Assembly: GCF_007744515.1 (NCBI RefSeq) | Contig: NZ_CP036268.1 | Span: forward strand, 510,482 to 574,481 | Source of the DNA: Stratiformator vulcanicus | Lineage (GTDB): Bacteria > Planctomycetota > Planctomycetia > Planctomycetales > Planctomycetaceae | Reading direction: 5' to 3' | Length of the DNA stretch: 64,000 bases | Shown: one piece after another, positions 1-42,936 of the stretch | Layout: every line of letters starts with the position of its first letter | How positions within the stretch are numbered: the first letter of the stretch is position 1 | Translations under genes and position numbers: made by a program | The notes under the pieces: generated by a model | The model's input: only the letters and a program-made list of their open reading frames with translations | Told to the model about the DNA's origin: nothing | The model's database searches: none

Positions 1-34
1 CCGCCCGCCGGAGTTCGACGCCAGATTCCTTCGC

Positions 35-2389: not shown

Positions 2390-2590
2390 TGCTCGCTTCG
2401 CAAATCGTTCTGAAACCACAACTTAACGTCCGCGATTCGAGCGGTTCGGGGATCGACGGGCAGCCGAGGGCGTTGCCAACGACCCGGCTGCGTAAGTGGT
2501 TGTCAAAGAACGAGTTCCGCATGCGAGGGCTCACGGGGGTTTGCGCGGCACCGAACCGCTCGAAGAGTATAATGCGATTTTGCCGCCATC
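2390..2590 (-). other. CRISPR leader region
   Basis: This 200-bp stretch without a credible gene lies between the newest repeat (2354-2389) and the cas2 stop. Its position beside cas2 and the intact terminal repeat mark it as the leader end where new spacers would be inserted. A second TTGACA occurs on the minus strand at 2501-2506 without a convincing -10 box. Confidence 0.75.
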
Positions 2591-22754: not shown

Positions 22755-23192
22755 TCAACTACCGTTTTCGAGAAATTCTATCATGTCGTCCAAAATATCA
22801 CCGATATCTCCTTTACCTGCCTTTTCTCCGAAATGTCTCAGATTATCCATTCGATCCTGAAGCTGAAAGTAGTCCGGTCTACTGTTAACGAAATCGTTCA
22901 ACTGTTTCTGCGACAGGTCCAATTGATCCGCAGCCTCCGCGATGCGGCGATGCTCGTAGCCTTTTCTATGCCCGAAATGAAAGTCGTCATAGACGGCGCC
23001 CGTTTCTTTGTCCTTAAATCTTCCATTTCCGAGAGGTAAATAATCGTCCAAGATTTTCCGCTTAGTCCCGGCCCGCAGCGACGGTCGTCCTAGATTCCCT
23101 CCGGCAGGTCCGCCGGAGTAAGCGAAGCGGCCGTCGGAACCGTGGAGATTCCCAAGATGATCTCGCTTCGTTCCCGGGACATCATAATCCGC
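22755..23192 (-). other. GH-E nuclease toxin tip of the giant protein
   Basis: This 145-residue C-terminal module follows VLVHN. It has the GH-E signature: FGHRKGYEHRRIAEAADQLD, a helical QLNDFVNSRPDYFQLQDR segment, then RHFGEKAGKGD. GH-E proteins are HNH/EndoVII-fold nucleases of polymorphic toxins. The tip starts ADYDVPGTKRDHLG; ADY directly after the Hint end is shared with cassettes C and F. Confidence 0.82.
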
Positions 23193-29100: not shown

Positions 29101-32100
29101 TCTTCCGTTGCTCCCTGACTAGCGGCCCCCGTCAAGTGGGTCGCGTTCTGTTTTTCCGAGTGTTCTTCACCCTGAGTTCCCCATCGGAGACCGGTGTGCG
29201 ACTTCGTACCACTCGCAATGCTTACGGTTCCATCAATGATCCGCTCGGTTGTATTTAACGTATTGGCCCAACTCCCGTGACCTATATCCGAATCGCTACT
29301 CGAGCCTTCTGAAAACTCGGTGCCGCCGTCGGAAGCGTCGTCGTCAGTATAAGTTGAGAAGGACTCATTACTGCGGTCCCACAGAAGAATCCCGAAATCG
29401 AAGTCGGAACTCGTGACTGTGATGTCGGAACCCGTGATAGCTGACCCGGTCCCGGAAAAACTCCCAAAGGTCGTCTCCGTGAAGAGGCCTTTGCCGAGTT
29501 GATGGTTCGAGTCACCGACGTTGAACGATTCGAATGCTCCTGTCGGCGCGGTGTAACTGCCATTGGCAGTCAAGTCATGTTTGACATCCGACTGCAGGCG
29601 GAACGTCGAGCCAAATCCATCCACGTATCCGCTCAGTGACTGGCCGCCGACCGGGTCATCGTGATGGGTGCTGGCAACTATAAAAGAGTAGTCTCGATTG
29701 CGAATCTCCGCCGTCTCGACCTTGTCTTCGAATATATAGTTTGGACCCGAGTTCGAGGTTCGGGTCGTCGTGTCTGTTCGATTCCAGTTGAGAATGTCGT
29801 CGATGATGTTCTGAGTCGAATGCTCAACCGTGGTGTTTTGAACGCCGTCGACATCGATCTGTCGAGTTCCCTCGGCCTCATAGAGCAGCGTCTGCGTCCC
29901 GACCAGACTGCCGACTTCGGTAACAGTTCGGACAATTGATTCGGCACCGATCGTGTCGGTCTCCGTCGTCGTATGGTCGACGATTATGCTGTAAGGATCG
30001 ACGATGCTGTGAGAAAATTCGAACTCTTCTTCAGAAACCGAAGTTTCGCCCGGAGCGGCAGTGACCGTGGCCTCCGCGGTGAAATCCCAGTACTCGGTAC
30101 TGTCGACTCCAATCGCAAGAAAGCCCCCTGAGTAAATTTCAGTCGACGTCGATTCGCCAGTCACACCAGAAAGGCTTGTCTTAAAGTAGTCGGTGTAGGG
30201 CTGAAGCGATGTGTCTGATGCCCCATCGGCACGCCGGACTCCTTCGAAAATTCCCAGGTAGTTCTGGTTTCCTGAGATGACACGACCGGTTTCCGGAACA
30301 TATTCGACGGAATCATTTTGGAATTCTCGCACGCGATAAACGCTGGTCGCGCCAAGTCCGTGCGCCTCGACACTGTACCCGTAGCTCCCTGACAGCGTGA
30401 CGGTATAGTCGCTGCCGCCTGCAGTCGCGAAATCTTGAGTGACAATATATGTCGCGCTTAGCGATTCCAGTCGATGCCAAACGCCCTGAGCATCTTCATA
30501 CGAATGCTCAGTTCGTTGTCCGGCGATCGTGGTCGTTACCGTCAGGGTGCCGCCGTCGATGTCGGTAACCTCAACGTTCACATTACCAATATCGAAACTT
30601 GCGTCGTCGATTGCAGCGTACGTGAGTAGCCCGTTCAACGGATTAGTGTCGAACACACGAACTCCGCTATTACCGATATATGTGCCGGCAAGGTAAGCGT
30701 TCGCTTGATCGGCACGCTGGGCAGCACCGGGCCAGAAAGTCCCATCTGCAAAAGTGAGCCGGTTTTCCTCTTCAATCGTTACGGTCGGAACTGACGGGCG
30801 ATCGACGATTGTGGCGGCAGCCTCGATCGTCCTTTCGAAATCGACTGTGACTAATGTCCAATCTCCCGCGGCGACGCTGCCATCGACCGCCTGCAAGGGT
30901 GCGACTCGTAGTCTGACGTTATATATCCCGTCTGCAGTCAGATATGGCAGAAGATTCAACACAAATTCGCCGCCGGACGAGACGTCGGCATAAGTTTGGC
31001 CATCCACGACTCCGTCGCCGTTGAAGTCGAACTCCACCGCGTAGACATCGGCTCCATCGTCAACGGTTGACAATACTCCCGAAATCACCGGAGCTGACGT
31101 CGGGCCCGAAGGAGAATTGACACTCGTGATCTCGGGCAGGTCGACAGGCTCAACGTTGACATCCCAGTCGAAGGCAAAGCTTGTCGAATCGCCACGAACC
31201 GCCCGCCCGTCTGGCTCGTAGCGAATCAGCGTCAGTAGGACGGTATGGCTTCCCGGTTGGCCTAGGTCCCCTGTCAAGTCGATCTCGAATGTTCCGTCGG
31301 ACGCCGACCACACAACTTGATCCGCGACGCCATCACCGGTCCATTCCAGTTCAACCAGATAGGTTGAGTCGGCTTGAAGATCGGCGACCGAGCCGACCAC
31401 GATTGGCCTGGCCGCTGTTGGATTGCCCGCGCCAGCTATGGGATCCAACAGTCCGACTTGGTTGAAGCTCGGGAGAACGTTGTCGAGCGAGACGGCGAGC
31501 GCCGTCCAATTTCCCAATACCTGCACTCCGTTCGCATCGATCCCGACGGCGCGAAATGCAATCTCACTGCCGAACGACTCCGGAGTGATCGCCCAGAGTG
31601 CAAATTCGAAAGATCCGTCCGACGCGATGTTTACTATGATTTCGTCATAGACGCCGTCGCTATCAAAGTCGACTTCAACAAGTGGTTGGGAGTACGACAA
31701 TGTGGCATTAACCAGCGTACCCGTGATAATGCCTTCACCGCCTACTGCCGTTGTCTGCAGAAGGTTTTCCACACTTAGCGGCTGGGACTCGGCTTCGACC
31801 AGCCGTATGCCGAGACTCACCCAAGTCCCTTCGAGATAATTCGAGGTCGCCGGGTCCCATGTTCGCGCCCTTAGTGCAACAGTGTGTTCACCCGTGACTA
31901 GACCGGCAGCAAGAAGGTCGATCTGAAATGTACCGTCGATTTCAGGTGTGACGGCCCAATCCGAGAGGCCGTCTTCGTCGAAGTCGACCAAAATTTCGAT
32001 GAACGAGTCGGTAGAAAACGTTCCGCTTATCAGATTGCCCGAAATCATGCCGTCAGACGTGACGTTCCATTGCCCGTCGATCGTCGAGTCGATCGCGATC

Positions 32101-35100
32101 AAATTTTCGACTTCGGGCACCGCCAGCTGCGCCGGACGGTTAATCTCAAATCGTTCCCAGTCTCCATAGACCGTCGCGAATGTTGTGTCGTCTTCCAACA
32201 CCGCTCGAAAAAAGAGTGCCTGCGATCCTGAGCCGATTTGCGCAGCATCAACAGTTAAGGAGAATACTCCGTTGACGAGTTGAACGATCTGCTCCGAGAC
32301 GCCGTCGCCGTCACGGTCAAACTCGACGGATATGCCTGTCTGGCCCGCAGGCGCAAGAATTGTTCCTGTAAGATTCAAGTCTGCGTTGGGGTCCGTGAAT
32401 CCAGCATCGTCCGAAGGAGCAAAGATCACGCGCGGTGCAGAGTCGTCGTTGCCAGTCGGAGGTGCGTTCGGGTCCACATACTCGAAGATCAGTGATTTCC
32501 AATCGCCAACGCTGACGTTGCCGCCTAGATCAGTTGATGTCGCCCTGACTTGAATTTCGACGACGCCGGGCACGGAAGCCCCCGACAAGTCAATTGAAAA
32601 ATTTCCGGTGGCACTCAGGCCTTGGGTAAGGTCGGCAATGCCGTCATCGTCGATGTCGACCTCGATCACGACATCAGATTCGGGAGAGATTCCGATGACC
32701 TCTCCCTCGATAGTTGGATCAAACGTAGCGAGTTGATCGTTGAGCGAACCTGCACTGCCGATTCGCAAATTCGCGACCTGCGGGTACTCGACCTCAGGCA
32801 GGACAATCGGCTCAAGTGAAACTGCGACAGTAAGCGTCGCCGTACCGCCGAACGAGTCGGTCACGAGAATGGTCAGTTCACGCGTTTCCGAGTTTGTAGA
32901 GAACCAGTCGGCAGCGAGTACCAGTTCTCCTCCGAAACCGACGCCGAACAAGCCGTCGTCGTTTCCGGACGTGATTGCAAAACTTAGGTCACTAACGGAG
33001 CCGATTTCAGGAGGTGGGACGAGCGAACCAACAAGCGTCCCTTCGCCGGAGTCGGTTTGTATGACGAAGCTCAGTGCCGCATCGCTTGGAACTTGGGCGA
33101 CCAGTCGATTATCTATAACAGTTACCGATACGACTTGGTCGCTACTCGTCGACCCGTCTGACACCCGGATCGTCAACGAATGAATTCCAACTTGTAGAGG
33201 GCCAGCGTTCTCGTTTACAAGAAGCCGAGATCCGTCGATCGAGAACGTATCGGAACCGCCGACAATTTCGAAACTGACATCGGCGGACTCCGGGTCGACC
33301 GCCCGCAGCTCACCTACTAAGTGAGGGCCGACTTGTCGCTGGTCGATCGTGAATGCGGACGAGATTATCGTCGGCAATTCATTGACATCGTTGATACTCA
33401 GCGACACCGAAGACGTTGCTGCCGGCTGGTCCGTGCCGTCGAACCACGCCTCAACCAAGAACGTGTAACTCGGAGTCTGTTCGTGGTCGAGCGGCCCGCT
33501 AACCAATAGTGAGCCGTCCGGTCCGATCGTAACCGGGAGTGATTCGTCCGATGATCGGATCCTGTAGGTGACCGGCAATCCTTCAGGGTCGATCGCAGTC
33601 ACTGTGCCCGGCGAGTTTAGTGCCTGATTTTCGTCAACGTCGAAGTCGTAGTGTTGCTGGGAAAACAAAACCGGCTCGTCGACATTCACGACGAGGACTT
33701 CGATCGGGATAGTGTTGATTCCTCCATATTCATCAACAATCTCCACATCAAATATCAAAGTCGTATCAACCTCGGCGTCGACTGAGCCTACAAAGCTCAG
33801 CGTTCCAGTCGTCGCATTGATGGCGAACCGCGAAGAATCCCCGCCTTCCCGAATCGAGAATTGTGCAGATTTGGTGACTCCCGAATTCACCTTGCCGAAG
33901 GCAGCGTCGGGCGGGACGGACTCTTCAACGGAGAATTGCTGCGTCTCATTCGATACTTCTGCAACATCCTCGACCTCGACCGCTACGGTAAGTGCGAGCG
34001 ATCCGTACTGACCGGAGGCCCGGATCGAAAGCGATTGGATCGAAGCTAGTTCGTGATCAACCAAGCCGGTCAGCGTCAAAACACCGCTCTGCGCGTCGAC
34101 GCTGAAGTCCGTATTTTGCCCGTTCATCGCAAAAGCGATTGGTCCCCCCAGCAGCTTCCTCAACTCATAGCTTGCCACCGATCCCAACTCTGTACCGGAT
34201 GTCGCCGCCTCCGAGACGGAGAATCGGCGACGCAAAGTGACTCCGGTTTGCGAGGAGTCCAAATCGTACGCAGGAAGAACATCGATGCGGACGTCTGTGG
34301 TAGAAGACGCACCCTCGCCATCGGAAACGGAAACAATGATGTTGTAAGACCCGACTAGAGCGCGGTCGAGCGGTTGGACGAGACTCAGGTCGCCGGTGCC
34401 CGAGTCCAAGGCGAAAGGGCCGCTATCGCCGACGATCGTGTATATCAAGCTGCCGTGATTTTCCGGATCGGTAGCCGAAACTCTGCCGACGATAACCCCG
34501 CCATCATACGGGGCGTCCTCCTCCAAAAAGAATACATAGCTCGCCGAGTCAAAAATCGGGGCCTGATTGGCGACAACGGTTAAGGTGACGACTGAATTGC
34601 TTGTTGTCGTCCCATCGTCGGCGGTGACCGTCACCTGATGTGACGTGGCCGCCATATAGTCGAGCGGGGCAGCGAGGGTTAATTGGCCGTTGCTGTCAAT
34701 ATTAAACATCGCGGCGTCGGCGCCGCTGAGGGACCAGGTAAGGGAGTTGGTGTCTCCCGTGGACGCGAATTGATGGACTAGGGTGCCGGTGGGTCTGCCG
34801 TCGAGCAGGGATGTTGATACATCCGCGATCGCCGGCGCGGCATCCTGAATATTAATCGTTACATTGGCCGATGTGGCGACTCCATCGCCGTCGGTCGCGA
34901 TAACTTCAATGACTTCGGTCGGCGACTGCTCGAAATCGACTGAGCCGGTGAGCGTGATCTCTCCGCTGATCGCATCAATCGCGAAACGATCCGAGCCCGT
35001 CCCCAGCGAGTAGGTGATCGTCCCGCCGGCTTCATCATCGGGATCGACGGCTACGGCGGTGCCGACGGAGGTCTCGTTCTCCGCGAGTTGGAACGGTCCC

Positions 35101-38100
35101 GCATTATTAAAGACCGGGGCTTCCTGCTGATCGGTGACATTAATAACAATCGTCGCCGTGTCTTTGAAGGCCGCGTTATCGGGGTCGGTGGCTTCGACGG
35201 TGAGCGTGTATTGGCCGGGGCCAACTTCGTAGTCGAGCGTCGCGGCTGCGGCGACGGTAATCGCGCCGGTTGCCGCGTCGATGGTAAACTGACCGTCTTC
35301 GTTCCCGGCTGTGATGGCATAGGTAGGCGGCAGGCTATCGAAGTCGGCATCGGTCGCCATGACAGTCGCGACGGGCGTGCCTGCAGCAGAGTTCTCGATA
35401 ACGTTAGCGTTGTAAACCGGTTGCCCGAAGATCGGCGCGTTGTCGTTCACCGGTAGAACATTAATCGTGACGAGGACCGTAGCGGTTCTTAAAGCGTCAT
35501 CCGGATCGGCTGCCTCAATTTGCAGCTGGTATTGAGCGGGAGGCGTGTCGGCATCGAGCGACTCTCCGGCTGCGAGCGCGATCTCGCCGCTGGATGCATC
35601 GATAGCGAATTTGCCGTCCTCATTGCCCGAGACGATGGAATAAACGGGAGAACCGCTCTCGGCATCATCGTCGATCGCCGAGACTGTTCCGACGAGCGTT
35701 TCCGATGCGGCGTCTTCACCGATCTGCCATGTGTAAGATGCGGCCCCGAAGACCGGGTCGAATTCATTAATGTCCGTCAGTTCGACGGTCACCCAATGCG
35801 TGACCGCGGTACCGCCATCGTTGCTCGCTTCGATTAAGAGCGTGTAGTCGGCGGCGACTTCCCGATCGAGTGTTGCGCCCGAGGCCACGCTGATCTGACC
35901 GGACGCGTTGATGTCGAACAAGGCACCTCCGGTGCCATCGACGATCGAGTACCCAGGAGTCGTGCCGTCGGCATCGGTCGCCGTCACTATGCCAACCGCA
36001 GTTCCGGACGAGCTGTTTTCATCGATTGAAAACGGCGAAGCCGGAGGGTCAAACACCGGCAGATTGTCGTTCTCATTAAGAACGTCAATCGTTACGACGG
36101 CCGTGTCGGTATTAAGGCCGTCAGTCACTTCAATAGTGATCGAGTGCGAGGTGGCCGTTTCATAGTCGAGCGTACCGGCTAGTCTGAGTGTGCCATCCGG
36201 GTCGATCGAAAACAGTTCATCGTCGGTGCTGCCGGGATCGTTAACGATCGACCACGTGAGGGAATTAGTGTCACCGGTCGGAATGAATTGCGTCACCGCC
36301 GTGCCGATTGCGGCGTTTTCCGCAAGGCTCGTCGTCAGGTCTGAGATTGAGACTGGAGCATCGGTGATATTGATCGTCACCGTCTCAACACTCAGCAACG
36401 TCGAATCAACGGCATCGCGAACTTCAACGTCGAGCGTGTAGCTAGCGACCGTCTCGTAGTCGAGCGATGTGCCGGAGGCGACTCGCAATTCACCGGCGGC
36501 GTTAATCTCGAACAGCCCCTGGCCGCTGCCGCCGACGATGACATAGACGGGATCAGCCGCCCCCACATCAGGGTCGAGCGAGTTCAGCAGTCCAAAGGGA
36601 CTCGTGCCGTCGTCAGTCTCGTCGATCGAAAAATTGAACGGTGCGCCGACAAAAGTCGGGGCTTCATTCGCATCGGTGACATCAATCGTCACGACGGCCG
36701 TGTCGGTATTATGGCCGTCCGTGACTTCAACAGTGATCGAGTGCGAAGTGGCCGTTTCATAGTCGAAAGTGCCGGCCAGCCGGACGGTGCCGTCCGGGTC
36801 GATCGTGAACAGTTCATCGTCGGTGCTGCCGGGATCGTCAACGATCGACCATGAGAGCGAATTGACATCGCCGGTCGGGATGAGTTGCGTAACCGCCGCT
36901 CCGGCCGCAGCGTCTTCCGCAAGGCTCGTCGTGACGTCTGCGATTGAGACTGGGGCATCGGTCACGTTAATCGTAACGCTCGCCGTGACGGCGGCATTCA
37001 CGCCGTCACTCACCGAAATGGTCAAGACATACTGCGGCGTCGTCTCATAATCGAGTACGGCCCCGCTTGCGACCGAGATAAATCCATTATTGTCGATCGT
37101 GAACTGATTTAGCGGATCGCCTGCGGTGATCGCATAGCTTAATGGTTGCTGCTCGGGATCAGATGCACTGATTGTTCCTGCCGGCGCCTCATCTTCCCGT
37201 AGTTGAAGCGGCCCGTTCGTCGCGAAGCTTGGAGCTTCGTTCACGTCAGTGACGTTTATTGTGACGACGGCGGTGACGAGATGATTTCCATCGTCCGCGG
37301 AAATCGTCAGTTGGTGTTGCTGGGTGGCCTCATAGTCGAGCGTCTTACCGCTCGCGACGGAGATCACGCCGGAGCCGTCAATCGTGAACAAACCGAGCGG
37401 GTCGCCGCCCACAATGTCGTATGTCAGCGGAAGTTGCTCAGGGTCGACCGCAGCGACCGACCCGATGATTAATTCGTCTTCGGTAACCTCAATCGGAGCC
37501 AATGTCGGGAAGGCTGGAGCTTCGTCGACATCGCCGATATTAATTTCAATCGTCGCCGTTGCCGGAGCATTCTGCCCGTCGCTCGCTGAGACCGTGAGTG
37601 TGTATTGCGGTGTGGTCTCGTGATCGAGGCTGACCCCGGCGGCGAGTTTAATGGTGCCGGACGCATCGATCGTAAAGAGATCGGAGCCGTCGCCCGGTAC
37701 AATCGCGTAGACCGGTGTTGTGCCGTCGGCGTCCGTTGCGCTAACGGTGCCCACCGCCGCCGCGGCCACTTCGTCCTCGTCAATCGTAAACGCATACGAG
37801 GCCTGACCGAACACGGCCGGTGAATCGACCAGATCATTAACGTCAACCGTCAGCAGGAATTCATCGAAGTAACTCGTGTCGTTCTGGTTCGTCGCCTCGA
37901 CGATGAGATTCAGTTGCGAATCGGCCTCGTAGTCGATTGGCCCGGCGACGGTCACCCGTCCGTCGGAATCAATCTGAAACAGCCCGGCATCGTCACCGGA
38001 GAGGGAGTAGGTGACAGGGTCGCCATCCGGAATGATCGCGGCAAATTTTTCCACCAGCGTGCCGAGGGCGACATTCTCGTCCACGCTGATCGACTTCGTC

Positions 38101-40508
38101 GGAGGATCGGCGACGATCACCCCGGCGGCTTGCAGGCCGTTCTCCGGAATGACCCCCGCCTCGGCGAGCCAGTTACTGACGATGACGCCTGACTCGGCGA
38201 GCGGATCGGCGATAGACAGGCCGTTATCGAGCGTGACTTTGTCGAGACGGACGTAGGACGTGCCGTACCAGTAGGTTCTTAATTCGATGACGGCATCGTC
38301 AGCCGACGAGAATTCGAGTGCGAAGTCCTGATAGGTCCACGAAGCATTAAATTGCTGACGCGTGAGAATGCGGCTTGTAAGAACCTGTTGACGAGCCGCG
38401 TCGACGACATCAATCTTCACCACATTGGCATTATTCGCCGTGTGATTGTCGACCAATAACCGATAGGTCGCGACGTGATCACCTGCGGGTACCGAGTGGG
38501 AATAGGGACCGTACGCCATGAATTGTCCGGGCGTGTCGACTCCGACTTTCGCCCGCCAACCATCAGCCTGAGCTACTCCGATTTGGTGGTAGAATGCTGC
38601 ACTTTCCGCTTCGTAGACGACGCGATCGACCCGTGCCCCAGGCACCTCGGTCACGTCGACCCGATCCATGCGGACGTAGGAGTTCCCGTGCCAAAACACG
38701 CGAAGCTGAAGACTCTGGCCCGCGCTTGCTTCGTAGAAAAGATCAAAATCCTGATATGTCCAAGCCGAATGAAACTCTTTTCGAGTGATCGTTCGCTGAG
38801 CAAGCGGCTGCAACGTTGCATTATCGAAGACATCGATCGTCACAATTTGATCGTCGGCGAAGGTGTTATTGTCCACCATCAATCGAAACGACGCCTTGCC
38901 CGCCCCGGTGACGGTCGCGGTATGCCCCTTGTAAGCCAGATAGTTCGGTGTATCGAGTGCTGTATTCGCCGACCAGCCATCGGCATCAGCTCGCCCGACT
39001 GGATGTGCGAAAGCGTTCTCAGCTTCGAAGGTTCGCTTCGCGAGTCGACCACCGGGGTGCTCGGTGAAGGTCACATTGTCGACCCACACGGCTGCGGTGT
39101 CGGTCCAGAAGGCACGGAAGCCGTAGGTCTTGCCTTCTTCGGCTTCGAAGGCGATGTGGAAGTCCTGATATGTCAGCGCGGCGTCAAAGTCGTAGCGACG
39201 AATCGTCCGTTCGTGCAGTGTATTGCCCGTGGCTCCATCGTAAACATGCAAGTGGAAGATCGCGTCGTTGCTTGACGTGTGGTTATCAATTTTGGCGCGA
39301 AATGTGACGGTATGCACTTCCGCATTAAGCGCCAGCGGAACTGGAGAGTGGACGATGTAGTTTGCCGAGTCGTCAGCCACAGTCGCCGACAAACTGGTAC
39401 CGTCGACATGACCGATGACGTACCCAATGTCGGTTTCCGCTTCAAACACCGTGTGGGCCAATCGAGCGCCCGGATGTTCGGTCAGCGTGACACGGTCGAT
39501 CCGAATGCCGGTCGAATCATACCAGTACGTGCGAAAGCCGTACGTAGTGCTGCCGTCCGCTTCAAAAGCGAGGTGAAAATCCTGGTATGTCACCGGGTCG
39601 TCGAATTCAAAGCGGCTGATCGTCCGCTCGTGAAACACCGTCGCGCTGTTATTAAAATCAAAGACTTCCAGCCGGACAATATCGATGTCGCCGGACGTGT
39701 TGTTATCGACCAGAAGCCGTAACGTCACGGAGTGAACTCCGGCCGCCAGATCGTGCCCGGTCGGGCTCTTCGCTACGTAGCCAGCGTCGTGCAGACTGAC
39801 ACCAAGCGCCCAACCATCGACGCCGACCTGCCCAACATCATGTTGCAGTTCCGTCTCCGCTTTATAGGTCGTATTGGCCAGCCGAGCCCCGGGATGCTCG
39901 GTGACGGAGACGTGATCGACCTTCACAGCGGCCGCGTCGAGCCAGTACACGCGAATGCCATAAGCCGTGCTGCCGTCTGCTTCGAACGCGAGATGAAAGT
40001 CTTGAAAAGTATTTGCCTCACCGAAATCAAAGCGGCTCACCGTCTGCGACTTAAGTGCCGTGCCGCTATTAAAGTCATAGACTTCCAGCCGGGCGACATC
40101 GATGTCGTCTTGCTCACTATTATTGACCGAGAGCCGGAACGTGGCGGTGTGAACCTCGGCATTAAGATTCAGGGCGGTCTGGCTCTGAGCCATATAGCCG
40201 GCGTCGTCGAGACTGACCGACGTCGACCAAGCGGCGCCCTCCTGCCGGCCCACGGCGTTCTGCAAGTCGCTTTCGGCCTCGAACACCTGAGGGGCCAGAC
40301 TCAGCGTTACTTCGGAGTCATCGGGCGATGCACCGCTGAGCAACACCCGCTGCTCCAAGGGCTCCGTAACGACCATAGGTCGTCGGCGAGTCCGAGCCAC
40401 GCGGCGGGATCGAAAATACGGCGCGTACCGGGAGCGCAAATCGGTCAACCAATGGGAAAGAAGCATGGCGAGGCGAGAGGGGCGACGAGTGCGGCAGCCC
40501 GAGCACAT
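22755..40508 (-). CDS. Giant exported polymorphic toxin (5917 aa), LEPR-XLL/cadherin/Hint/GH-E
   Basis: Domains in order: a basic N-terminus with LEQRVLLSG (51-59), the planctomycete LEPR-XLL-type export segment; five CBM-like repeats of about 130 residues, each starting with an FEAE-like motif (75 to about 735); about 18 cadherin-like repeats (about 800-2565), often with DEN, ATDAD or SVDENV-like motifs; several Ig-like repeats with D-x-D-x-DG loops (about 2570-3240); a Ser/Thr/Asp-rich stalk (about 3240-5200); a pre-toxin region (about 5260-5450); the split Hint domain (Cys5452 to Asn5772) with two membrane segments; and a 145-residue GH-E nuclease tip. The size and adhesin-like ectodomain suggest contact-dependent delivery to a neighbouring cell. 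The ATG at 40508 is 25 nt from a predicted transcription start; ATG 40466 is an alternative. Confidence 0.93.
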   Translation of the reverse strand: MCSGCRTRRPSRLAMLLSHWLTDLRSRYAPYFRSRRVARTRRRPMVVTEPLEQRVLLSGASPDDSEVTLSLAPQVFEAESDLQNAVGRQEGAAWSTSVSLDDAGYMAQSQTALNLNAEVHTATFRLSVNNSEQDDIDVARLEVYDFNSGTALKSQTVSRFDFGEANTFQDFHLAFEADGSTAYGIRVYWLDAAAVKVDHVSVTEHPGARLANTTYKAETELQHDVGQVGVDGWALGVSLHDAGYVAKSPTGHDLAAGVHSVTLRLLVDNNTSGDIDIVRLEVFDFNNSATVFHERTISRFEFDDPVTYQDFHLAFEADGSTTYGFRTYWYDSTGIRIDRVTLTEHPGARLAHTVFEAETDIGYVIGHVDGTSLSATVADDSANYIVHSPVPLALNAEVHTVTFRAKIDNHTSSNDAIFHLHVYDGATGNTLHERTIRRYDFDAALTYQDFHIAFEAEEGKTYGFRAFWTDTAAVWVDNVTFTEHPGGRLAKRTFEAENAFAHPVGRADADGWSANTALDTPNYLAYKGHTATVTGAGKASFRLMVDNNTFADDQIVTIDVFDNATLQPLAQRTITRKEFHSAWTYQDFDLFYEASAGQSLQLRVFWHGNSYVRMDRVDVTEVPGARVDRVVYEAESAAFYHQIGVAQADGWRAKVGVDTPGQFMAYGPYSHSVPAGDHVATYRLLVDNHTANNANVVKIDVVDAARQQVLTSRILTRQQFNASWTYQDFALEFSSADDAVIELRTYWYGTSYVRLDKVTLDNGLSIADPLAESGVIVSNWLAEAGVIPENGLQAAGVIVADPPTKSISVDENVALGTLVEKFAAIIPDGDPVTYSLSGDDAGLFQIDSDGRVTVAGPIDYEADSQLNLIVEATNQNDTSYFDEFLLTVDVNDLVDSPAVFGQASYAFTIDEDEVAAAAVGTVSATDADGTTPVYAIVPGDGSDLFTIDASGTIKLAAGVSLDHETTPQYTLTVSASDGQNAPATATIEINIGDVDEAPAFPTLAPIEVTEDELIIGSVAAVDPEQLPLTYDIVGGDPLGLFTIDGSGVISVASGKTLDYEATQQHQLTISADDGNHLVTAVVTINVTDVNEAPSFATNGPLQLREDEAPAGTISASDPEQQPLSYAITAGDPLNQFTIDNNGFISVASGAVLDYETTPQYVLTISVSDGVNAAVTASVTINVTDAPVSIADVTTSLAEDAAAGAAVTQLIPTGDVNSLSWSIVDDPGSTDDELFTIDPDGTVRLAGTFDYETATSHSITVEVTDGHNTDTAVVTIDVTDANEAPTFVGAPFNFSIDETDDGTSPFGLLNSLDPDVGAADPVYVIVGGSGQGLFEINAAGELRVASGTSLDYETVASYTLDVEVRDAVDSTLLSVETVTINITDAPVSISDLTTSLAENAAIGTAVTQFIPTGDTNSLTWSIVNDPGSTDDELFSIDPDGTLRLAGTLDYETATSHSITIEVTDGLNTDTAVVTIDVLNENDNLPVFDPPASPFSIDENSSSGTAVGIVTATDADGTTPGYSIVDGTGGALFDINASGQISVASGATLDREVAADYTLLIEASNDGGTAVTHWVTVELTDINEFDPVFGAASYTWQIGEDAASETLVGTVSAIDDDAESGSPVYSIVSGNEDGKFAIDASSGEIALAAGESLDADTPPAQYQLQIEAADPDDALRTATVLVTINVLPVNDNAPIFGQPVYNANVIENSAAGTPVATVMATDADFDSLPPTYAITAGNEDGQFTIDAATGAITVAAAATLDYEVGPGQYTLTVEATDPDNAAFKDTATIVINVTDQQEAPVFNNAGPFQLAENETSVGTAVAVDPDDEAGGTITYSLGTGSDRFAIDAISGEITLTGSVDFEQSPTEVIEVIATDGDGVATSANVTINIQDAAPAIADVSTSLLDGRPTGTLVHQFASTGDTNSLTWSLSGADAAMFNIDSNGQLTLAAPLDYMAATSHQVTVTADDGTTTSNSVVTLTVVANQAPIFDSASYVFFLEEDAPYDGGVIVGRVSATDPENHGSLIYTIVGDSGPFALDSGTGDLSLVQPLDRALVGSYNIIVSVSDGEGASSTTDVRIDVLPAYDLDSSQTGVTLRRRFSVSEAATSGTELGSVASYELRKLLGGPIAFAMNGQNTDFSVDAQSGVLTLTGLVDHELASIQSLSIRASGQYGSLALTVAVEVEDVAEVSNETQQFSVEESVPPDAAFGKVNSGVTKSAQFSIREGGDSSRFAINATTGTLSFVGSVDAEVDTTLIFDVEIVDEYGGINTIPIEVLVVNVDEPVLFSQQHYDFDVDENQALNSPGTVTAIDPEGLPVTYRIRSSDESLPVTIGPDGSLLVSGPLDHEQTPSYTFLVEAWFDGTDQPAATSSVSLSINDVNELPTIISSAFTIDQRQVGPHLVGELRAVDPESADVSFEIVGGSDTFSIDGSRLLVNENAGPLQVGIHSLTIRVSDGSTSSDQVVSVTVIDNRLVAQVPSDAALSFVIQTDSGEGTLVGSLVPPPEIGSVSDLSFAITSGNDDGLFGVGFGGELVLAADWFSTNSETRELTILVTDSFGGTATLTVAVSLEPIVLPEVEYPQVANLRIGSAGSLNDQLATFDPTIEGEVIGISPESDVVIEVDIDDDGIADLTQGLSATGNFSIDLSGASVPGVVEIQVRATSTDLGGNVSVGDWKSLIFEYVDPNAPPTGNDDSAPRVIFAPSDDAGFTDPNADLNLTGTILAPAGQTGISVEFDRDGDGVSEQIVQLVNGVFSLTVDAAQIGSGSQALFFRAVLEDDTTFATVYGDWERFEINRPAQLAVPEVENLIAIDSTIDGQWNVTSDGMISGNLISGTFSTDSFIEILVDFDEDGLSDWAVTPEIDGTFQIDLLAAGLVTGEHTVALRARTWDPATSNYLEGTWVSLGIRLVEAESQPLSVENLLQTTAVGGEGIITGTLVNATLSYSQPLVEVDFDSDGVYDEIIVNIASDGSFEFALWAITPESFGSEIAFRAVGIDANGVQVLGNWTALAVSLDNVLPSFNQVGLLDPIAGAGNPTAARPIVVGSVADLQADSTYLVELEWTGDGVADQVVWSASDGTFEIDLTGDLGQPGSHTVLLTLIRYEPDGRAVRGDSTSFAFDWDVNVEPVDLPEITSVNSPSGPTSAPVISGVLSTVDDGADVYAVEFDFNGDGVVDGQTYADVSSGGEFVLNLLPYLTADGIYNVRLRVAPLQAVDGSVAAGDWTLVTVDFERTIEAAATIVDRPSVPTVTIEEENRLTFADGTFWPGAAQRADQANAYLAGTYIGNSGVRVFDTNPLNGLLTYAAIDDASFDIGNVNVEVTDIDGGTLTVTTTIAGQRTEHSYEDAQGVWHRLESLSATYIVTQDFATAGGSDYTVTLSGSYGYSVEAHGLGATSVYRVREFQNDSVEYVPETGRVISGNQNYLGIFEGVRRADGASDTSLQPYTDYFKTSLSGVTGESTSTEIYSGGFLAIGVDSTEYWDFTAEATVTAAPGETSVSEEEFEFSHSIVDPYSIIVDHTTTETDTIGAESIVRTVTEVGSLVGTQTLLYEAEGTRQIDVDGVQNTTVEHSTQNIIDDILNWNRTDTTTRTSNSGPNYIFEDKVETAEIRNRDYSFIVASTHHDDPVGGQSLSGYVDGFGSTFRLQSDVKHDLTANGSYTAPTGAFESFNVGDSNHQLGKGLFTETTFGSFSGTGSAITGSDITVTSSDFDFGILLWDRSNESFSTYTDDDASDGGTEFSEGSSSDSDIGHGSWANTLNTTERIIDGTVSIASGTKSHTGLRWGTQGEEHSEKQNATHLTGAASQGATEDWTFTTSNQNSSSNISGKYTVTTTGTGVISNAGLDYSETETWSESGQSNASSAFNLTSVSNSGSDPNGTSHSIVNRGSSESRSGSYTEITVLGTTTFADGSENSSSNYDFDESGTTSWSDYSGLSTTGYRRVDQISTPGSELVSVSASGSTNGATDSGTGTYLLDFDVDRTLTNGVLASRVEESREVEDRDDGTITSSVSSEVAAYTGAPPQSTGGLSPTDVRNLGIQMGGPVDNARGSMNWQNSQSTTSETYSDRTEVYSLNDNGATSGFEQWDRNGTTDATGTSEFQSLAETSRKVTSSSAAGTKEDEKTTSKDASGNGSFQSTTTSNESRRADFIGEILVYSGSDQFVTSLNTNNLESSTADIERYVTVDGELVRYESNDRSVTDADTTVAADTTRRLDFGHDQSGTSFRTELDQGNEVVVESTPERTTRSIFSTDSTGSDSSGSYTRSHTRGSTDKVTDEEIKTTTTWDWTTSNSGRVGEETVTVDGSGNVDKSSFFHDNRDYGAASGGQSTNDIDSSGHTSREGYFTIDASNFESIDSDAEASSSESFERIESGNFDEFKQSTTNRVVSKPVPSHAGLTRTDTINITQTDKKVDGTYYYETTSATPDPGIGESTTTETNYIYEDFTAESDKTSRTNSLTTGTRNIDPLTTLTIIANSFQTENGDSTTQSTIERTETTVTTDALAQSNSIESATHVGTSNLTTSLNRISLTQTSERINEPTHGGRNDRTQIESELTDSTVTENFDESVTIETNADGETKTTTVARSTSGTPNIEGTSDWNESTTVIIDSTIYERQAVGISPKKTTKLYQTDTTTEIGESSFSASLAKTVVNDFDGTETVTGDGGNSETESTVTTKTNSHSTKKVTDNDWRLIGGSANGYFGHGWRDLFETGDSTSSETVHTAGTAELVFGTNGEEQWGSETTVTTDRYETHDRRSENRAKAESFLNVATGLTAASLVGSLGIWNSNFYSAVLNGINSVLQVGGDGDVYVSEVQKLHTTKTTASKIKTVKQHGLPDDPIDLYKDPESGSNVDPATKIVNHSTRLSYSGVEVTTNSEEQTVENGVTVDTTTTDRDYQHGRGFYGTLTNYADGSRENIKGEITGMNRDYQKVVVTRSSPDINSWKSTSISEVTGFSTEDRIVTHDGSNDPEIVTAGFSSVEIDSDSFDETWDIKKDIPYTWVVPGFFEGADEWPDAVGDISYTNKGHHKNSSNRTLIQRGGADPDGKINVSVSYIANGDSDFSLNEKAEGTLSSDSVAQGLTAELRIDQTHTGTGNGEMNISMNYSAILSADEPPVIAYSETGSTDFTINESLDHTVGQTIPTWFMTDANGDMLQEHEDTDGDGLIDTWVDSSGNVVSNPTLVVVDDALDEDISSDWTYTEIYDHSIDVDDLVDAGTAWELAEEMTASWTGDISPFNWSTWQPEFDFVQIHAVMDGGNPSILGTIIVNVTPTLPGTPFSSPNLIGTTFEDHEHLLSTSMVDPASADWINIFPEETQSFFAAAAGFGQYYIDAVGGALQDANDGSLQDGLRGWTDGFLDTVNPFSHVDWLNVPDLGPAYRQADAYATGQTVGVVSGIAVDFAISIYGPGLVKCGTWAHRAFAAREAVDLAGGLHNSYQNFQDGKFGVMDAITVAGVGLNVSALGRASKKCFTAGHMIVTAPPADMAANVRYAAMSNGPDEAGDSITIAAALAGALGLLVIKGRRNRREREREMKPQGWQLLATGWDTSATPVGDVGVDLNREFDLNGGLDQSEPQRFLSTPQKSIVRIEEPQRDAAPLERPRRSRNSLWRRVIGLTLLLGSAAVLAGSFFLGEATATAVSTAAATQATVEEFDTSHRKPIEEIKVGDKVLARDEDGEAIGWQEVDEVYERTSDHLRFLKVRSESGETQTFETTDEHPFWSAIRGAWIDAGELKAGEKLTGPDGKTHTVVFTEREEHPEGVAVYNFRVAGAHTYFVAAVDAPRGPPVLVHNADYDVPGTKRDHLGNLHGSDGRFAYSGGPAGGNLGRPSLRAGTKRKILDDYLPLGNGRFKDKETGAVYDDFHFGHRKGYEHRRIAEAADQLDLSQKQLNDFVNSRPDYFQLQDRMDNLRHFGEKAGKGDIGDILDDMIEFLENGS
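23193..24155 (-). other. Split Hint autoprotease domain with transmembrane hairpin insertion
   Basis: This region covers residues 5452-5772. Block A (CFTAGHMIVTA, Cys codon 24153-24155) is separated by about 175 residues from the next Hint strand (KPIEEIKVGDKVLARD, from about 5641). The insert has one membrane segment (ITIAAALAGALGLLVIKG, about 5487-5503), a basic RRNRRERERE stop, an 80-residue linker, and a second membrane segment (VIGLTLLLGSAAVLAGSFFL, about 5593-5614). Block B (TTDEHPFWS), block F (HTYFV) and the VLVHN end follow. In Hint toxins this domain releases the C-terminal tip. Confidence 0.85.
23512..24261 (-). repeat. Direct repeat copy 2 (giant toxin), pre-toxin/Hint
   Basis: Partner of 20976-21725, nearly identical over 750 bp. 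A further partial copy of the right-hand part lies at 13079-13630 (cassette G). The shared DNA covers TM2, the insert, TM1, block A and part of the pre-toxin region. Confidence 0.95.
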
Positions 40509-40572: not shown

Positions 40573-40824
40573 ATGGTTGTGAAAATATTTATTGGTACAA
40601 CCGGACCGATGACAGAACCTGTCACCTGTATGATAGTGCGGTATTCCGCGGTTGGCCGTAAGTGGTTACTTCGCGGGGCATTGCGGTCTACCCGCACGGG
40701 AGCGGGAAAAACGAAATGGCCGATCTCGAATTCGGAAACAATCGTCCCCATTTCTGACGCATCCGGCCTCAAGGCCCCTGATAGCTAAAAAAACCAAGGC
40801 CCGTCTCTCCCGTGATTGAATGGG

Positions 40825-40861
40825 AAAAAGCAGCGGCGGTTGATGTCTCGACCGCCGCTGC
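40825..40861 (-). terminator. Intrinsic terminator
   Basis: A perfect 11-bp stem (40830-40840 with 40851-40861) with a 10-nt loop is followed on the minus strand by five T. It would end transcripts of the small genes at higher coordinates and isolate the giant gene's promoter. Between 40862 and 41035 no firm gene is seen; an open frame passes through but also runs through this hairpin. Confidence 0.75.
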
Positions 40862-41035
40862 ATTGTAGCTACTATGGGACTGAAGCCATCGAATTCAGCT
40901 TCGCCGTCGTCGTCGCCTTCGGCGACTTGGCCGCCCGTCATACTGGCAAAGCCACAATTCGGTCCCTCCGATGACAGTGAGGTGAATAAGTTCTTCCACT
41001 TTGTCTCCAAGAATTCCGTGTAAGTTAAGCCGATG

Positions 41036-41221
41036 TCAGGTGGTCTGCTTCCGCGATCGCTGCGAGAACAGCGACGTGTTCCGCCGGAGGTCGACGGCGT
41101 CCCAGTCGATGTAGGAGCCGCTTTTGTCCTCTTCATCCGGTCCGAAGCCGCGATGCTTGATGGTCTGGACGGTCTCGCCCGTCGCTCGGGCGACGGCACG
41201 ATAGAGGTCAATGCTTTTCAT
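41036..41221 (-). CDS. Small conserved-looking protein (61 aa), unknown function
   Basis: This 61-residue protein starts MKSIDLYRAVARATGETVQT, then IKHRGFGPDEEDKSG and YIDWDAVDLRR. The first half could be a short helix-turn-helix-like unit (RAVARATGETVQTIKHRGF), but this is not enough to call a DNA-binding protein. It starts at ATG 41221, about 25 nt after a strong terminator hairpin, and belongs to the cluster of tiny genes at 41036-41895. Codon use looks coding. Function is unknown. Confidence 0.6.
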   Translation of the reverse strand: MKSIDLYRAVARATGETVQTIKHRGFGPDEEDKSGSYIDWDAVDLRRNTSLFSQRSRKQTT

Positions 41222-41247
41222 TGATCGGAACCTTTTCTGGAATTAAG

Positions 41248-41273
41248 AAAGGCCGCTCCCTTCGGGAGCGGCC
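41248..41273 (-). terminator. Intrinsic terminator
   Basis: A perfect 10-bp GC-rich stem (GGCCGCTCCC 41251-41260, GGGAGCGGCC 41264-41273) with a 3-nt loop is followed on the minus strand by TTTCTTAATT. It separates the 44-codon gene from the 61-codon gene. Confidence 0.82.
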
Positions 41274-41334
41274 TGCGGGATTAAATCGTTGGTACTGGTT
41301 TCGCCATGCGGCTCAGCCGAATTCCTCATCAACC

Positions 41335-41469
41335 TTACATAGAACAGCCGACGGAGAGTTCCGCGGCCGTCAAGTTCAGCGTCTGCTCCGGCTCAGTCGG
41401 GATTCCCCGGAGCCAGCGGACGTACTGGTCCGGCATTAAGCCCGCGGCGATATGGGCGGTGTAGATCAC
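41335..41469 (-). CDS. Small protein (44 aa), unknown function
   Basis: This 44-residue frame starts at GTG 41469 ([20 protein letters not shown], then [20 protein letters not shown]) and ends at TAA 41335. Its GTG overlaps the TGA of the 40-codon gene (GTGA), which is typical of coupled translation. It is also the in-frame tail of the longer MoaD-like open frame, so either reading is possible. No family is recognised. Confidence 0.45.
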
Positions 41470-41895
41470 CCCGCGGGCGGTGCAGCTTCCAGCTTGAGCC
41501 TCGTCTTGAGTAACAGCGTCGCCTCGTGCCGCTGCCGGAGCCGCTCCCGAATCTTGAGAGCCGCCCGGGCGGCCTCTCTGGTCTCCATAGTTGGTCTCCT
41601 TAATGAAAGAAGCCGGGCCGATGGTGTGCGTCGACCCGGCTGCGGTGTGTGGCGATGCGAAAGCGTCAAGCCGCGTGCCGGGCACTGTCGCCTTCGTCGG
41701 GGTGATCGAGACGCGATCACCCTCAGTCAGCACCTGCTCCGACGAAGCGGGGAGCCGGTTGACGCGAATGAGATAGTCCCGCGGCGACCCGTGGGGAATG
41801 TGCTTGGCGAACAGCTGCGAGGTCGTGGTGCCATCGGCGACCTCCACCCAGTCCGCGAATCTGCCGCCATCGTTGTTGGTCAGCATAACCTTCAT
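41335..41895 (-). CDS. MoaD/ThiS-like (beta-grasp) protein, open frame with long tail
   Basis: The first 70 residues read as a beta-grasp, ubiquitin-like protein: [47 protein letters not shown] and [16 protein letters not shown]. That is the length and strand order of MoaD/ThiS-like proteins, but no C-terminal Gly-Gly is seen. The frame continues without a stop for another 115 residues through a terminator-like hairpin and over two small genes in other frames. A one-base shift would give a stop at 41666-41668, so the real gene may be about 75 codons with a frameshift. It lies beside a VirD4/TraG fragment, suggesting origin in a conjugative element. Confidence 0.5.
41466..41588 (-). CDS. Small basic helical protein (40 aa), unknown function
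   Basis: This 40-residue protein, [20 protein letters not shown] followed by [15 protein letters not shown], is a charged, probably entirely alpha-helical peptide. A strong Shine-Dalgarno (AAGGAG) sits 7 nt before the ATG, and a terminator-like hairpin (41611-41641) precedes it. The clear ribosome binding site and the GTGA overlap with the next gene support that it is real. Function is unknown. Confidence 0.55.
41611..41641 (-). terminator. Terminator-like hairpin before the 40-codon gene
   Basis: Arms AGCCGGGCCGA and TCGACCCGGCT (11 bp, one mismatch) enclose a 9-nt loop and are followed on the minus strand by TCTTTCATT. If real, the MoaD-like gene should end before it, although no stop is found in that frame. 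Confidence 0.5.
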
Positions 41896-41914
41896 AGGTT
41901 CGTTTCTTCAGTAA

Positions 41915-42577
41915 ATGGATTTCATTAATGTCAGTCAGCGCATGAAAAGAGCCGGCTCTGAGCTGGATGAGCGAGTCGTCGTTTCCGCTATAGATTCCGC
42001 TTCAAGAAGGCCTCCTTTCGATTGGGGGCTAAGAGTTCAAACGACTAATTCGCTCCATAGATATATGCCACAAAACGAGAAGCAATTAAGCATCCGCCCT
42101 GAGTTCCAATCCGGGCCGCTGCCATTCGGTGTAAATGGTAGTGTTGGGCGGATGGAATCGATCGTCAGTGCCGCCGGTGAGGTGGCCGGTCACGGCCTGC
42201 GGATGCACTATGTGTTCCAAGACCTGACGCAGGCCAAAGACATCTACGGCGACCGCTGGCAAACCTTCGTTGCCAACTCCGGCGTCGTGCAATGCTTCTC
42301 GGCCAACGACATCTTTACGGCCGAGTGGATCTCCAAACGCCTCGGCCGCACGACCGTCGCCTACAGCGAACGCAGCGGCGCCTCCGGCATGGCCCTCGCC
42401 AGCCAACCCTTCGCCGGAACCGGCCGCACCGAAACCGTCGACCTCCTCGCCCCGCATGAAGTGATGCGGTACTTCGCCCGAGAGGATCGACACCTACGGC
42501 AACTACTGCTCGTCTCCGGCCAACCGCCGCTGGTGTGCCAGAAGGGGTATTACGACAAGATCAAGATGGTGGTTTAA
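41915..42577 (+). pseudogene. VirD4/TraG-type conjugative coupling protein, C-terminal fragment
   Basis: From about 42143 the frame matches the C-terminal half of VirD4/TraG ATPases: GRMESIVSAAGEVAGHGLRM, FQDLTQAKDIYGDRWQTFV, ANSGVVQCFSANDIFTAEW and LLLVSGQPPLVCQKGYY. The homologous part begins just after where the LDEF Walker B motif should be; the 77 residues before it do not resemble the family. The N-terminal ATPase half is therefore missing and the gene cannot be functional. No other conjugation gene is in the window. Confidence 0.82.
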
Positions 42578-42936
42578 AAGAGACGAATGCACTGTCGGCA
42601 CCTGAGACGTGCAGATTTCGGGTTATCAAAGAGCCGCTGCCATCATACACCAGCACCACGTCGTCGAGTCCACCCTTGGCCGGGTCGGAGTCGTAGAGAT
42701 AGCGGAACTCTTCGTCGATCGTCCCGTCGGCGTTCGAATCGACCGTCTTGCCGATCCGGCGGTTCGAGGCGTCGTAGGTGTAGCTGACGATCTTGGTCGC
42801 CACGCCGAGCGAGTCGCGGAAGGTGACTTCCGTCAGCCGATTGCGGTGGTCCCACTTGTATTCAACGTAATCGCCGGTGGCGATCGTGGTCTTGTTCTCG
42901 TCGCGGGCTTTGTTAAGTTGATCCGCTAGCCTAGCT
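42561..42936 (-). pseudogene. Rhs/YD-repeat protein fragment
   Basis: A frame of about 120 residues reads KARDENKTTIATGDYVEYKW, HRNRLTEVTF, SYTYDASNRRIGKTVDSNAD and YLYDSDPAKG, then DDVVLVYDGSGSLITRNLH. These are YD-repeat and conserved pre-core motifs of Rhs proteins. It has no N-terminal part (an in-frame stop lies just upstream) and no core or toxin domain, and runs tail-to-tail into the VirD4 fragment. It is a relic. Confidence 0.8.

What the first reader, a model, noticed from the sequence alone, without database searches (positions are those of the whole stretch)
41036..41895. Cluster of tiny genes and terminators with a MoaD/ThiS-like protein
Seen: a beta-grasp-like frame, a 40-codon gene with a strong AAGGAG site, a 44-codon gene overlapping it by GTGA, a strong terminator, a 61-codon gene and a second terminator. 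Gene-hairpin-gene order with such short genes is unusual. Known: MoaD/ThiS-like proteins also occur in bacterial ubiquitin-like modification operons. Inferred: remains of a mobile-element operon, since a VirD4 fragment lies next to it. No E1, E2 or JAB gene is present.
Basis: partly seen in the sequence, partly recalled or inferred. Interest (0 to 1): 0.55.

Follow-up and report, generated by a model that had tools for sequence, protein, structure and literature searches.

The report
Wreck of a planctomycete ubiquitin-like operon
The cluster of tiny genes is the wreck of a bacterial ubiquitin-like protein-tagging operon, whose enzyme genes were lost by deletion here but survive in other copies in the same genome and in many other planctomycetes.

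Summary
The same chromosome holds three more complete copies of one operon: a MoaD/ThiS-like Ubl, an E2-like protein with a Cys-rich RING-like tail, a JAB protein and a ThiF-type E1. In the window about 1.9 kb is missing, from codon ~23 of the E2 gene to the last ~60 codons of the E1 gene. The "40-codon gene" is the E2 start, the "44-codon gene" the E1 end; their GTGA overlap comes from a one-base shift. The Ubl frame has lost its conserved Glu-Gly end. The 61-codon gene belongs to a genuine operon-associated family. The VirD4 piece lies outside the repeated unit and looks incidental.

In public genomes, nearly all planctomycete, 54 of 58 long enough loci keep Ubl-E2-JAB-E1 in order. The gene-hairpin-gene layout is real: 53-54 of 63 Ubl-to-E2 gaps fold far better than shuffles, against 0 of 62 E2 coding pieces; 12 further loci have almost no gap. 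I infer that the hairpin keeps Ubl in excess. The window locus is a pseudogene; the intact operon is a new variant of a known kind, function untested.

The parts
41689..41895 (-). Ubl (MoaD/ThiS-like) core, 69 codons; the conserved KIEGA end and the stop are lost by changes and indels, so the frame runs on
   Evidence: 91% identical to the Ubl of L036 and L038, 87% to L037; DNA alignment
41335..41895 (-). continuous 186-codon frame: Ubl core, unrelated linker, E1 end; probably a by-product of decay
41611..41641 (-). hairpin between Ubl and E2 gene, weaker than in L036 (-22.3 against -31.5 kcal/mol for 70-nt pieces)
   Evidence: recurrent position in relatives
   Evidence: residues 1-24, 88% identical
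41516..41532 (-). deletion junction, shared by the E2-side and the E1-side match; about 1.9 kb missing
   Evidence: overlapping matches; sequences
   Evidence: 90.4% DNA identity to L035 and L036 over 41347-41532; protein comparison
41250..41274 (-). terminator-like hairpin, 11 pairs
   Evidence: a similar hairpin at the same place is seen by eye in L036 and L038
41036..41221 (-). 61-codon operon-associated small protein (three helices predicted, low confidence); frame intact
40895..40999 (-). 34-codon frame MEEL..., counterpart of the small hydrophobic/Arg-rich protein at the end of the other copies
   Evidence: the gene in L035-L037 and, by eye, in L038
40830..40861 (-). end-of-operon terminator hairpin followed by TTTTT
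40777..42075 (-). extent of the decayed operon unit, from matches to L038 and L036
42140..42577 (+). VirD4/TraG C-terminal fragment next to the unit; judged incidental

Best explanation
The locus is a decayed copy of a ubiquitin-like conjugation operon. Shown by sequence: three other copies in this chromosome carry, in order, a 76-codon Ubl, a hairpin, a 334-residue protein with an E2-type HPH...C motif and a Cys-rich tail, a JAB protein with a complete JAMM motif, a ThiF-family E1, then very small genes including the family of the 61-codon gene. In the window a deletion of about 1.9 kb joined the start of the E2 gene to the end of the E1 gene, a one-base loss shifted the frame just past the join, and further changes removed the Ubl end. 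Inferred for the intact operon: JAB trims the Ubl tail after the Glu-Gly, E1 adenylates the Ubl and passes it by its Cys to the E2 Cys, the fused RING-like tail helps pick targets, and JAB can take the tag off again. The hairpin between Ubl and E2 genes probably lets fewer or less stable transcripts cover the enzymes, so that the Ubl is made in excess. The window copy can do none of this by itself.
For: Pieces on both sides of the gap match the other copies: about 84% DNA identity on the Ubl side, 88-90% on the E1 side. The two matches overlap at window 41516-41532; E2 side CACGAGGCG and E1 side TACGAAGCG are alike there, and the shift lies just after (ttcacccaagac in copies, ttactcaagac here). 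Components: ThiF PF00899 E 1e-27 in L037; ThiS over cut-off in relative L069; Prok-JAB weak, E about 0.003. JAMM residues E22, H82, H84, S92, D95 invariant in 12 of 12 aligned. H169-P170-H171, C178 and eight Cys of the tail invariant in 22 of 22 aligned E2-RING proteins, three of them the own-genome copies. The AlphaFold model (pLDDT 78.9, pTM 0.52) has mostly E2s among its best Foldseek hits, though weak (best E 0.07), and Ubc13 aligned over 116-117 residues at rmsd 3.5-3.7, Z about 7. Order kept in 54 of 58 public loci. Ubl ends in K/R-I/V/L-E/D-G plus at least one residue in 78 of 80 loci (44 by pattern, 34 read by eye; the other two, L158 and L159, did not show it). Hairpin.
Against: The surviving pieces changed mostly at silent sites: Ubl dN/dS 0.08 against L036 and 0.17 against L037, E1 end 3 amino-acid-changing against 10-14 silent differences, so the decay is young relative to the divergence, or something is still selected. 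The 186-codon and 61-codon frames are open. Against selection: the Ubl has Arg at Gly12, invariant in 8 of 8 aligned relatives, and the E1 end has Asp at His203, nearly invariant in 13 aligned. The enzyme chemistry and the role of the hairpin are inferred only. JAB and E2 are not recognised above library cut-offs, and helical proteins unrelated to E2 reach equal or higher Z. Twelve of 76 loci have a Ubl-to-E2 gap under 30 bases, so no room for the hairpin as defined.
Confidence: 0.92

Rival explanations
1. The window encodes a real 186-residue fusion of Ubl and the E1 end, selected as a decoy or regulator of the intact paralogous systems in the same cell.
For: The frame is open across the Ubl, the old hairpin region and the E1 end; both homologous parts show few amino-acid changes.
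Against: The linker of 59 codons runs through the old intergenic hairpin and, in another frame, the E2 start; the Ubl lacks the Glu-Gly end; an invariant Gly is Arg. No dedicated search for such fusions in other genomes was made.
Confidence: 0.04
2. Four genuine small genes forming their own minimal module that borrows E1, E2 and JAB from the other copies.
For: The 61-codon and 34-codon frames are open and their families also occur in the other copies; in 21 of 25 loci of relatives brought in by the 61-codon protein no other operon gene lies within about 1.5 kb.
Against: The 40- and 44-codon frames are ends of two larger genes, and the Ubl should not be conjugated without its end.
Confidence: 0.03
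3. Remains of a conjugative or plasmid-borne element operon, as the reader inferred from VirD4.
For: A VirD4 fragment lies next to the unit; recombinases of one family lie by some operons; several copies per genome and patchy spread.
Against: No plasmid or phage match of the E2-RING protein; the genome has only one other VirD4 match, far from the operon copies found.
Confidence: 0.1

Closest known systems
Bacterial Ubl-E1-E2-JAB operons described by Iyer, Burroughs and Aravind 2006 (PMC1779556; passages seen)
   Same: Neighbouring genes for Ub-like, E1-like, E2-like and JAB proteins, described there as mobile gene clusters.
   Different: Here the E2 is fused to a Cys-rich RING-like tail, the E1 is a short ThiF-type protein, and a small accessory gene and an intercistronic hairpin recur. 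The window copy lacks the enzymes.
RING-containing ubiquitylation operon of Caldiarchaeum, said in a 2014 review to have relatives in Planctomycetes (PMC4197634, one passage seen; PMC5654768, passages seen)
   Same: Ubl, E1, E2, RING-type protein and JAMM protease in one cluster; Ubl made as a precursor trimmed by the JAMM enzyme.
   Different: E2 and RING-like parts are one protein here; the Ubl is MoaD/ThiS-like with a Glu-Gly rather than Gly-Gly end. Whether the planctomycete operons meant there are these was not checked: the review's reference 15 was not looked up, and the 2011 prokaryotic RING paper listed in PMC11354881 is not held.
BilABCD (PMC11354881, passages seen)
   Same: Ubl, E1, E2 and JAB protease; JAB trims the Ubl precursor.
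   Different: BilA has two Ubl domains and BilD a two-part E1; here one Ubl and an E1 of 217-234 residues (L069, L071, L037) matching the BilD model only weakly (L037 E 1.7e-8 over 111 residues).
E1-E2 and JAB (Cap2/Cap3-type) defence proteins in PADLOC
   Same: The E1 finds PADLOC 'E1-E2' models best (L037 E 2.2e-16, about 110 residues of a 426-position model) and JAB models weakly (E 3e-5).
   Different: Only the adenylation core matches; the E2 here is fused to a zinc tail, not to E1. No cyclase or other CBASS gene was searched for.
Bub operons (PMC13373217, passages seen)
   Same: Putative ubiquitination-like operons, hundreds found in diverse bacteria according to that paper.
   Different: Of the papers defining Bub one was tried and is not held, so gene content could not be compared; no search for CapK/CapS, CapW or CapH/CapP was made here.

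Membership tests
Bacterial Ub-like conjugation operon, as a functional system (window copy) | E1, E2 and JAB genes beside the Ubl | tested here: not met
   Only the start of E2 and the end of E1 remain
Bacterial Ub-like conjugation operon (intact copies) | beta-grasp Ubl with a conserved Gly end | tested here: met
   ThiS over cut-off in L069 (23.0 against 22.5 bits), below it in L036 (14.2); K/R-I/V/L-E/D-G in 78 of 80 loci (34 by eye)
Bacterial Ub-like conjugation operon (intact copies) | E1/ThiF adenylation protein | tested here: met
   PF00899 E 1e-27, 1.7e-29, 3.7e-24 in L037, L069, L087; Cys185 invariant in 13 of 13 aligned
Bacterial Ub-like conjugation operon (intact copies) | E2 fold with catalytic Cys | tested here: inconclusive
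   HPH and Cys178 invariant in 22 of 22; fold hits mostly E2s but weak; no Pfam match
Bacterial Ub-like conjugation operon (intact copies) | JAB with JAMM motif | tested here: met
   E, HxH, S, D invariant in 12 of 12; Pfam and NCBIfam scores below cut-off
RING E3 | cross-brace zinc domain that binds E2~Ubl | tested here: inconclusive
   Cys pairs invariant; Midline-1 zinc domain E 8e-4, FYVE and other zinc domains weaker; ligase action not testable
BilABCD | tandem-Ubl BilA | tested here: not met
   One Ubl domain of about 70 residues
BilABCD | BilD with inactive plus active adenylation domains | tested here: not met
   E1 frames of 217-234 residues in L069, L071, L037; L037 covers 202-320 of a 453-position BilD profile
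Conjugative element gene cluster | complete VirD4 | tested here: not met
   Only positions 313-445 of 468 of the family are matched, outside the unit
Conjugative element gene cluster | other transfer genes nearby | not tested
   No search for further transfer genes was made

The most novel reading that the evidence does not exclude
Planctomycetes carry a distinct, widespread ubiquitin-like tagging pathway in which E2 and a RING-like E3 are one protein and an RNA hairpin after the Ubl gene sets the ratio of tag to enzymes; the window shows one copy of it dying beside three more complete paralogues.
Probability: 0.4. Interest if true: 0.7.

Novelty: new variant of a known kind. Interest (0 to 1): 0.45.

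Why it matters
The window locus by itself is a pseudogene and modest. Its value is the signpost: it leads to an operon found in many Planctomycetota, with up to six Ubl matches in one genome, whose central protein (E2 fused to a RING-like tail) matched no Pfam, NCBIfam or PADLOC model in the members scanned. A fused E2-E3 with a minimal E1 would be a compact system for studying how ubiquitin ligation chemistry was put together. The recurrent hairpin after the Ubl gene offers a directly testable answer to how a cell makes much more tag than enzyme from one operon.

Tried and rejected
Considered and rejected: independent small genes (they are gene ends); VirD4 linkage; a plasmid or phage origin judged by similarity of the E2-RING protein (no match). 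Considered and left open: a CRISPR link. A single full CRISPR repeat lies about 130 bases past operon copy L037 and a truncated one past L035, but a simple exact-word finder saw no array in the 19 relatives' loci L069-L087, so I treat it as local history. The 61-codon family I first called HU-like by eye; its model is poor (pLDDT 68.5, pTM 0.28), and members scanned had no match above cut-off in Pfam, NCBIfam or PADLOC (best a bZIP model at E 0.13), so that name is only a label of mine. PHROGs was not searched.

Led nowhere: the genome-contig scan with one E2-RING protein (nothing confirmed); the E2-RING alignment was too diverse for that scan; the DNA search for a flank motif (no match). In one search a few Ubl matches carry stop codons, but these matches run past the end of the Ubl core, so I do not read them as decay.

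Weak points: the hairpin counts rest on heuristic start codons for the E2 gene and on 80 loci that are not independent (L158 and L159 have identical E1); 12 of 76 loci have gaps under 30 bases. Other places are also structured to a degree: z -2 or below in 8 of 51 E1 coding pieces, 11 of 45 regions before the Ubl, 26 of 58 regions after E1. The stem figures come from the best stem per gap, so they have no chance level. Four of 58 loci lacked one or more enzyme genes (L113, L116, L151, L166) and were not followed. L072 has a stop inside the E2-RING match. Three loci carry titles of other phyla (L117 Chloroflexota, L134 Emcibacter, L184 Actinomycetes); they may be mis-binned. The model also hit unrelated helical proteins at similar or higher Z.

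Full report
What was checked. A further hairpin lies at 41641-41611 between the Ubl frame and the 40-codon frame.

Own-genome copies. The Ubl frame has three more matches on the 5.2-Mb chromosome, 87-91% identical over residues 1-69; the 61-codon frame has four more, 65-85% identical. Fetching those places gave loci L035-L038. L036, L037 and L038 hold Ubl, E2-RING, JAB and E1 with the 61-codon family; in L036 part of the E1 is masked. L035 keeps only a piece of JAB, E1 and the small genes. L088 holds a lone E2-RING remnant. L036 and L038 are 97.8% identical over 2.2 kb.

How the window copy decayed. Window 41516-42075 matches the Ubl side of L036 at 83.9% and 41347-41532 matches its E1 end at 90.4%; the two matches overlap by 17 bases, while the matched places in L036 lie about 1.9 kb apart. 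The two flanks are alike at the junction, which fits a deletion between short repeats. The join itself would keep E2 start and E1 end in one frame; a one-base loss just beyond it shifts the frame. This makes the 40-codon and 44-codon frames. The Ubl frame lost its KIEGA end and stop, and now runs 186 codons in frame with the E1 end. A small hydrophobic gene found after E1 in L035-L037 was not found in L038, and I see no such frame in the window. Silent differences outnumber amino-acid changes in what is left, so the decay is young compared with the split between copies; Gly12 to Arg and His203 to Asp speak for relaxed constraint.

The intact operon. E1: ThiF family with an invariant Cys; that this Cys sits where ThiF has its active Cys is recalled, not tested. 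Its best NCBIfam match is ThiF (E 4e-21, far below that model's cut-off) and its best PADLOC match an E1-E2 model (E 2.2e-16). JAB: complete JAMM motif, Pfam and NCBIfam scores below cut-off. Ubl: ThiS over cut-off in one of two proteins scanned (L069 23.0 bits against 22.5; L036 14.2). The E2-RING protein: no match in Pfam for L036, L069 and L087, nor in NCBIfam or PADLOC for L069 and L087. In 22 aligned members HPH, Cys178 and Cys 228, 231, 243, 246, 251, 254, 258 and 261 are invariant. The model has modest confidence. Its best Foldseek hits are mostly E2s, none at E below 0.001; VIA-align gives Ubc13 Z about 7 with 116-117 residues, among unrelated helical hits of equal or higher Z. Sequence comparison with the PDB gives zinc domains of the B-box and FYVE type for the tail, best E 8e-4. 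I take E2 plus RING-like zinc tail as likely, not proven.

How widespread. The E2-RING protein was found in 16 of 392 genomes of the phylum, own genome included; the Ubl in 40 of 170 genomes of the order, own included, with up to six matches in one genome. Of 25 distinct E2-RING places outside the own genome, 19 were fetched with wide flanks; all 19 have Ubl, E2-RING, JAB and E1, and 18 of 19 the 61-codon family. A scan of named genomes with the Ubl alignment found 118 relatives, of which the best 80 were kept. Of the 80, 58 have at least 3.3 kb beyond the Ubl; 54 of these have E2-RING, JAB and E1 in the same order and strand. Of 50 with enough flank on both sides, 33 have the 61-codon family upstream, 3 only downstream and 14 none. 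In 21 of 25 examined loci of relatives brought in by the 61-codon protein no other operon gene lies within about 1.5 kb, so the family is not confined to the operon. Titles of the 80 loci include Lacipirellula, Gimesia, Rhodopirellula, Schlesneria, Gemmataceae and Phycisphaerae. In an E1 tree of 65 rows one Lacipirellula copy pairs with a Pirellula row rather than with the other Lacipirellula copy.

The hairpin. Of 76 loci with both genes, 63 have a Ubl-to-E2 gap of 30-400 bases and 12 a gap under 30. Against dinucleotide shuffles 54 of 63 reach z -2 and 47 z -3; a repeat gave 53 and 45. Same-length pieces of E2 coding sequence gave 0 of 62 at z -2, E1 coding 8 of 51, the region before the Ubl 11 of 45, and the region after E1 26 of 58. 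Strict terminator-like hairpins: 17 of 64 gaps against 1 of 320 shuffles. In 61 gaps with a stem found, the median best stem is 14 pairs and ends 25 bases before the E2 start; 36 of 61 have four or more T in the next eight bases. Because so little room is left after the hairpin, I infer that E2 is reached by read-through or through processed message, which would keep the Ubl in excess. A promoter inside the Ubl gene is not excluded. That partial terminators set such ratios in other bacterial operons is recalled.

Comparison with print. Iyer et al. 2006 describe several bacterial Ubl/E1/E2/JAB operon types (passages of PMC1779556). A 2014 review says that Actinobacteria, Planctomycetes and Acidobacteria carry operons related to the Caldiarchaeum cluster with Ub, E1, E2, RING and deubiquitinase (one passage of PMC4197634). 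So the kind is known. I saw no description of an E2-RING fusion with a MoaD/ThiS-like Ubl in the listings and passages from my searches, but the 2011 RING paper, a Bil paper and a Bub paper that I tried were not held, so no claim of absence from print is made.

Verdict. The intact operon is a new variant of a known kind with a testable RNA feature.

Noticed in passing
window 34-2395: CRISPR array, 36-base repeat at about 72-base spacing, 33 repeats. One search found six more copies of the repeat at C1:1589.7-1590.1 kb; one spacer there matches, by eye, the reverse complement of the start of the window.
   Followed up: partly
L037 7146-7181 and L035 6141-6157: A lone full CRISPR repeat, identical to the window array's, and a truncated one lie just past two copies of the Ubl operon, with the same flank. 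Possibly shared duplication history.
   Followed up: partly
window 22755-40508 (-): A 5917-codon frame with cadherin-like repeats by eye, ending in what looks like a Hint-type processing domain and a possible C-terminal toxin; not searched.
   Followed up: no
window 42561-42803 (-): Short frame that reads by eye like an RHS-repeat fragment, next to the VirD4 fragment; the stretch looks like a graveyard of broken genes.
   Followed up: no
L036 3839-5263, L084 7633-9111, L162 9387-10889, L163 6644-8236, L172 8959-10536: Tyrosine recombinases of one family directly beyond the operon end, on the opposite strand; 7 of the 80 loci have such a frame somewhere.
   Followed up: partly
L053 and L061 (G426): A distant version in another family of the phylum: L053 has a longer E2-RING-like frame, a JAB-like frame and E1; L061 JAB-like and E1 matches.
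   Followed up: no
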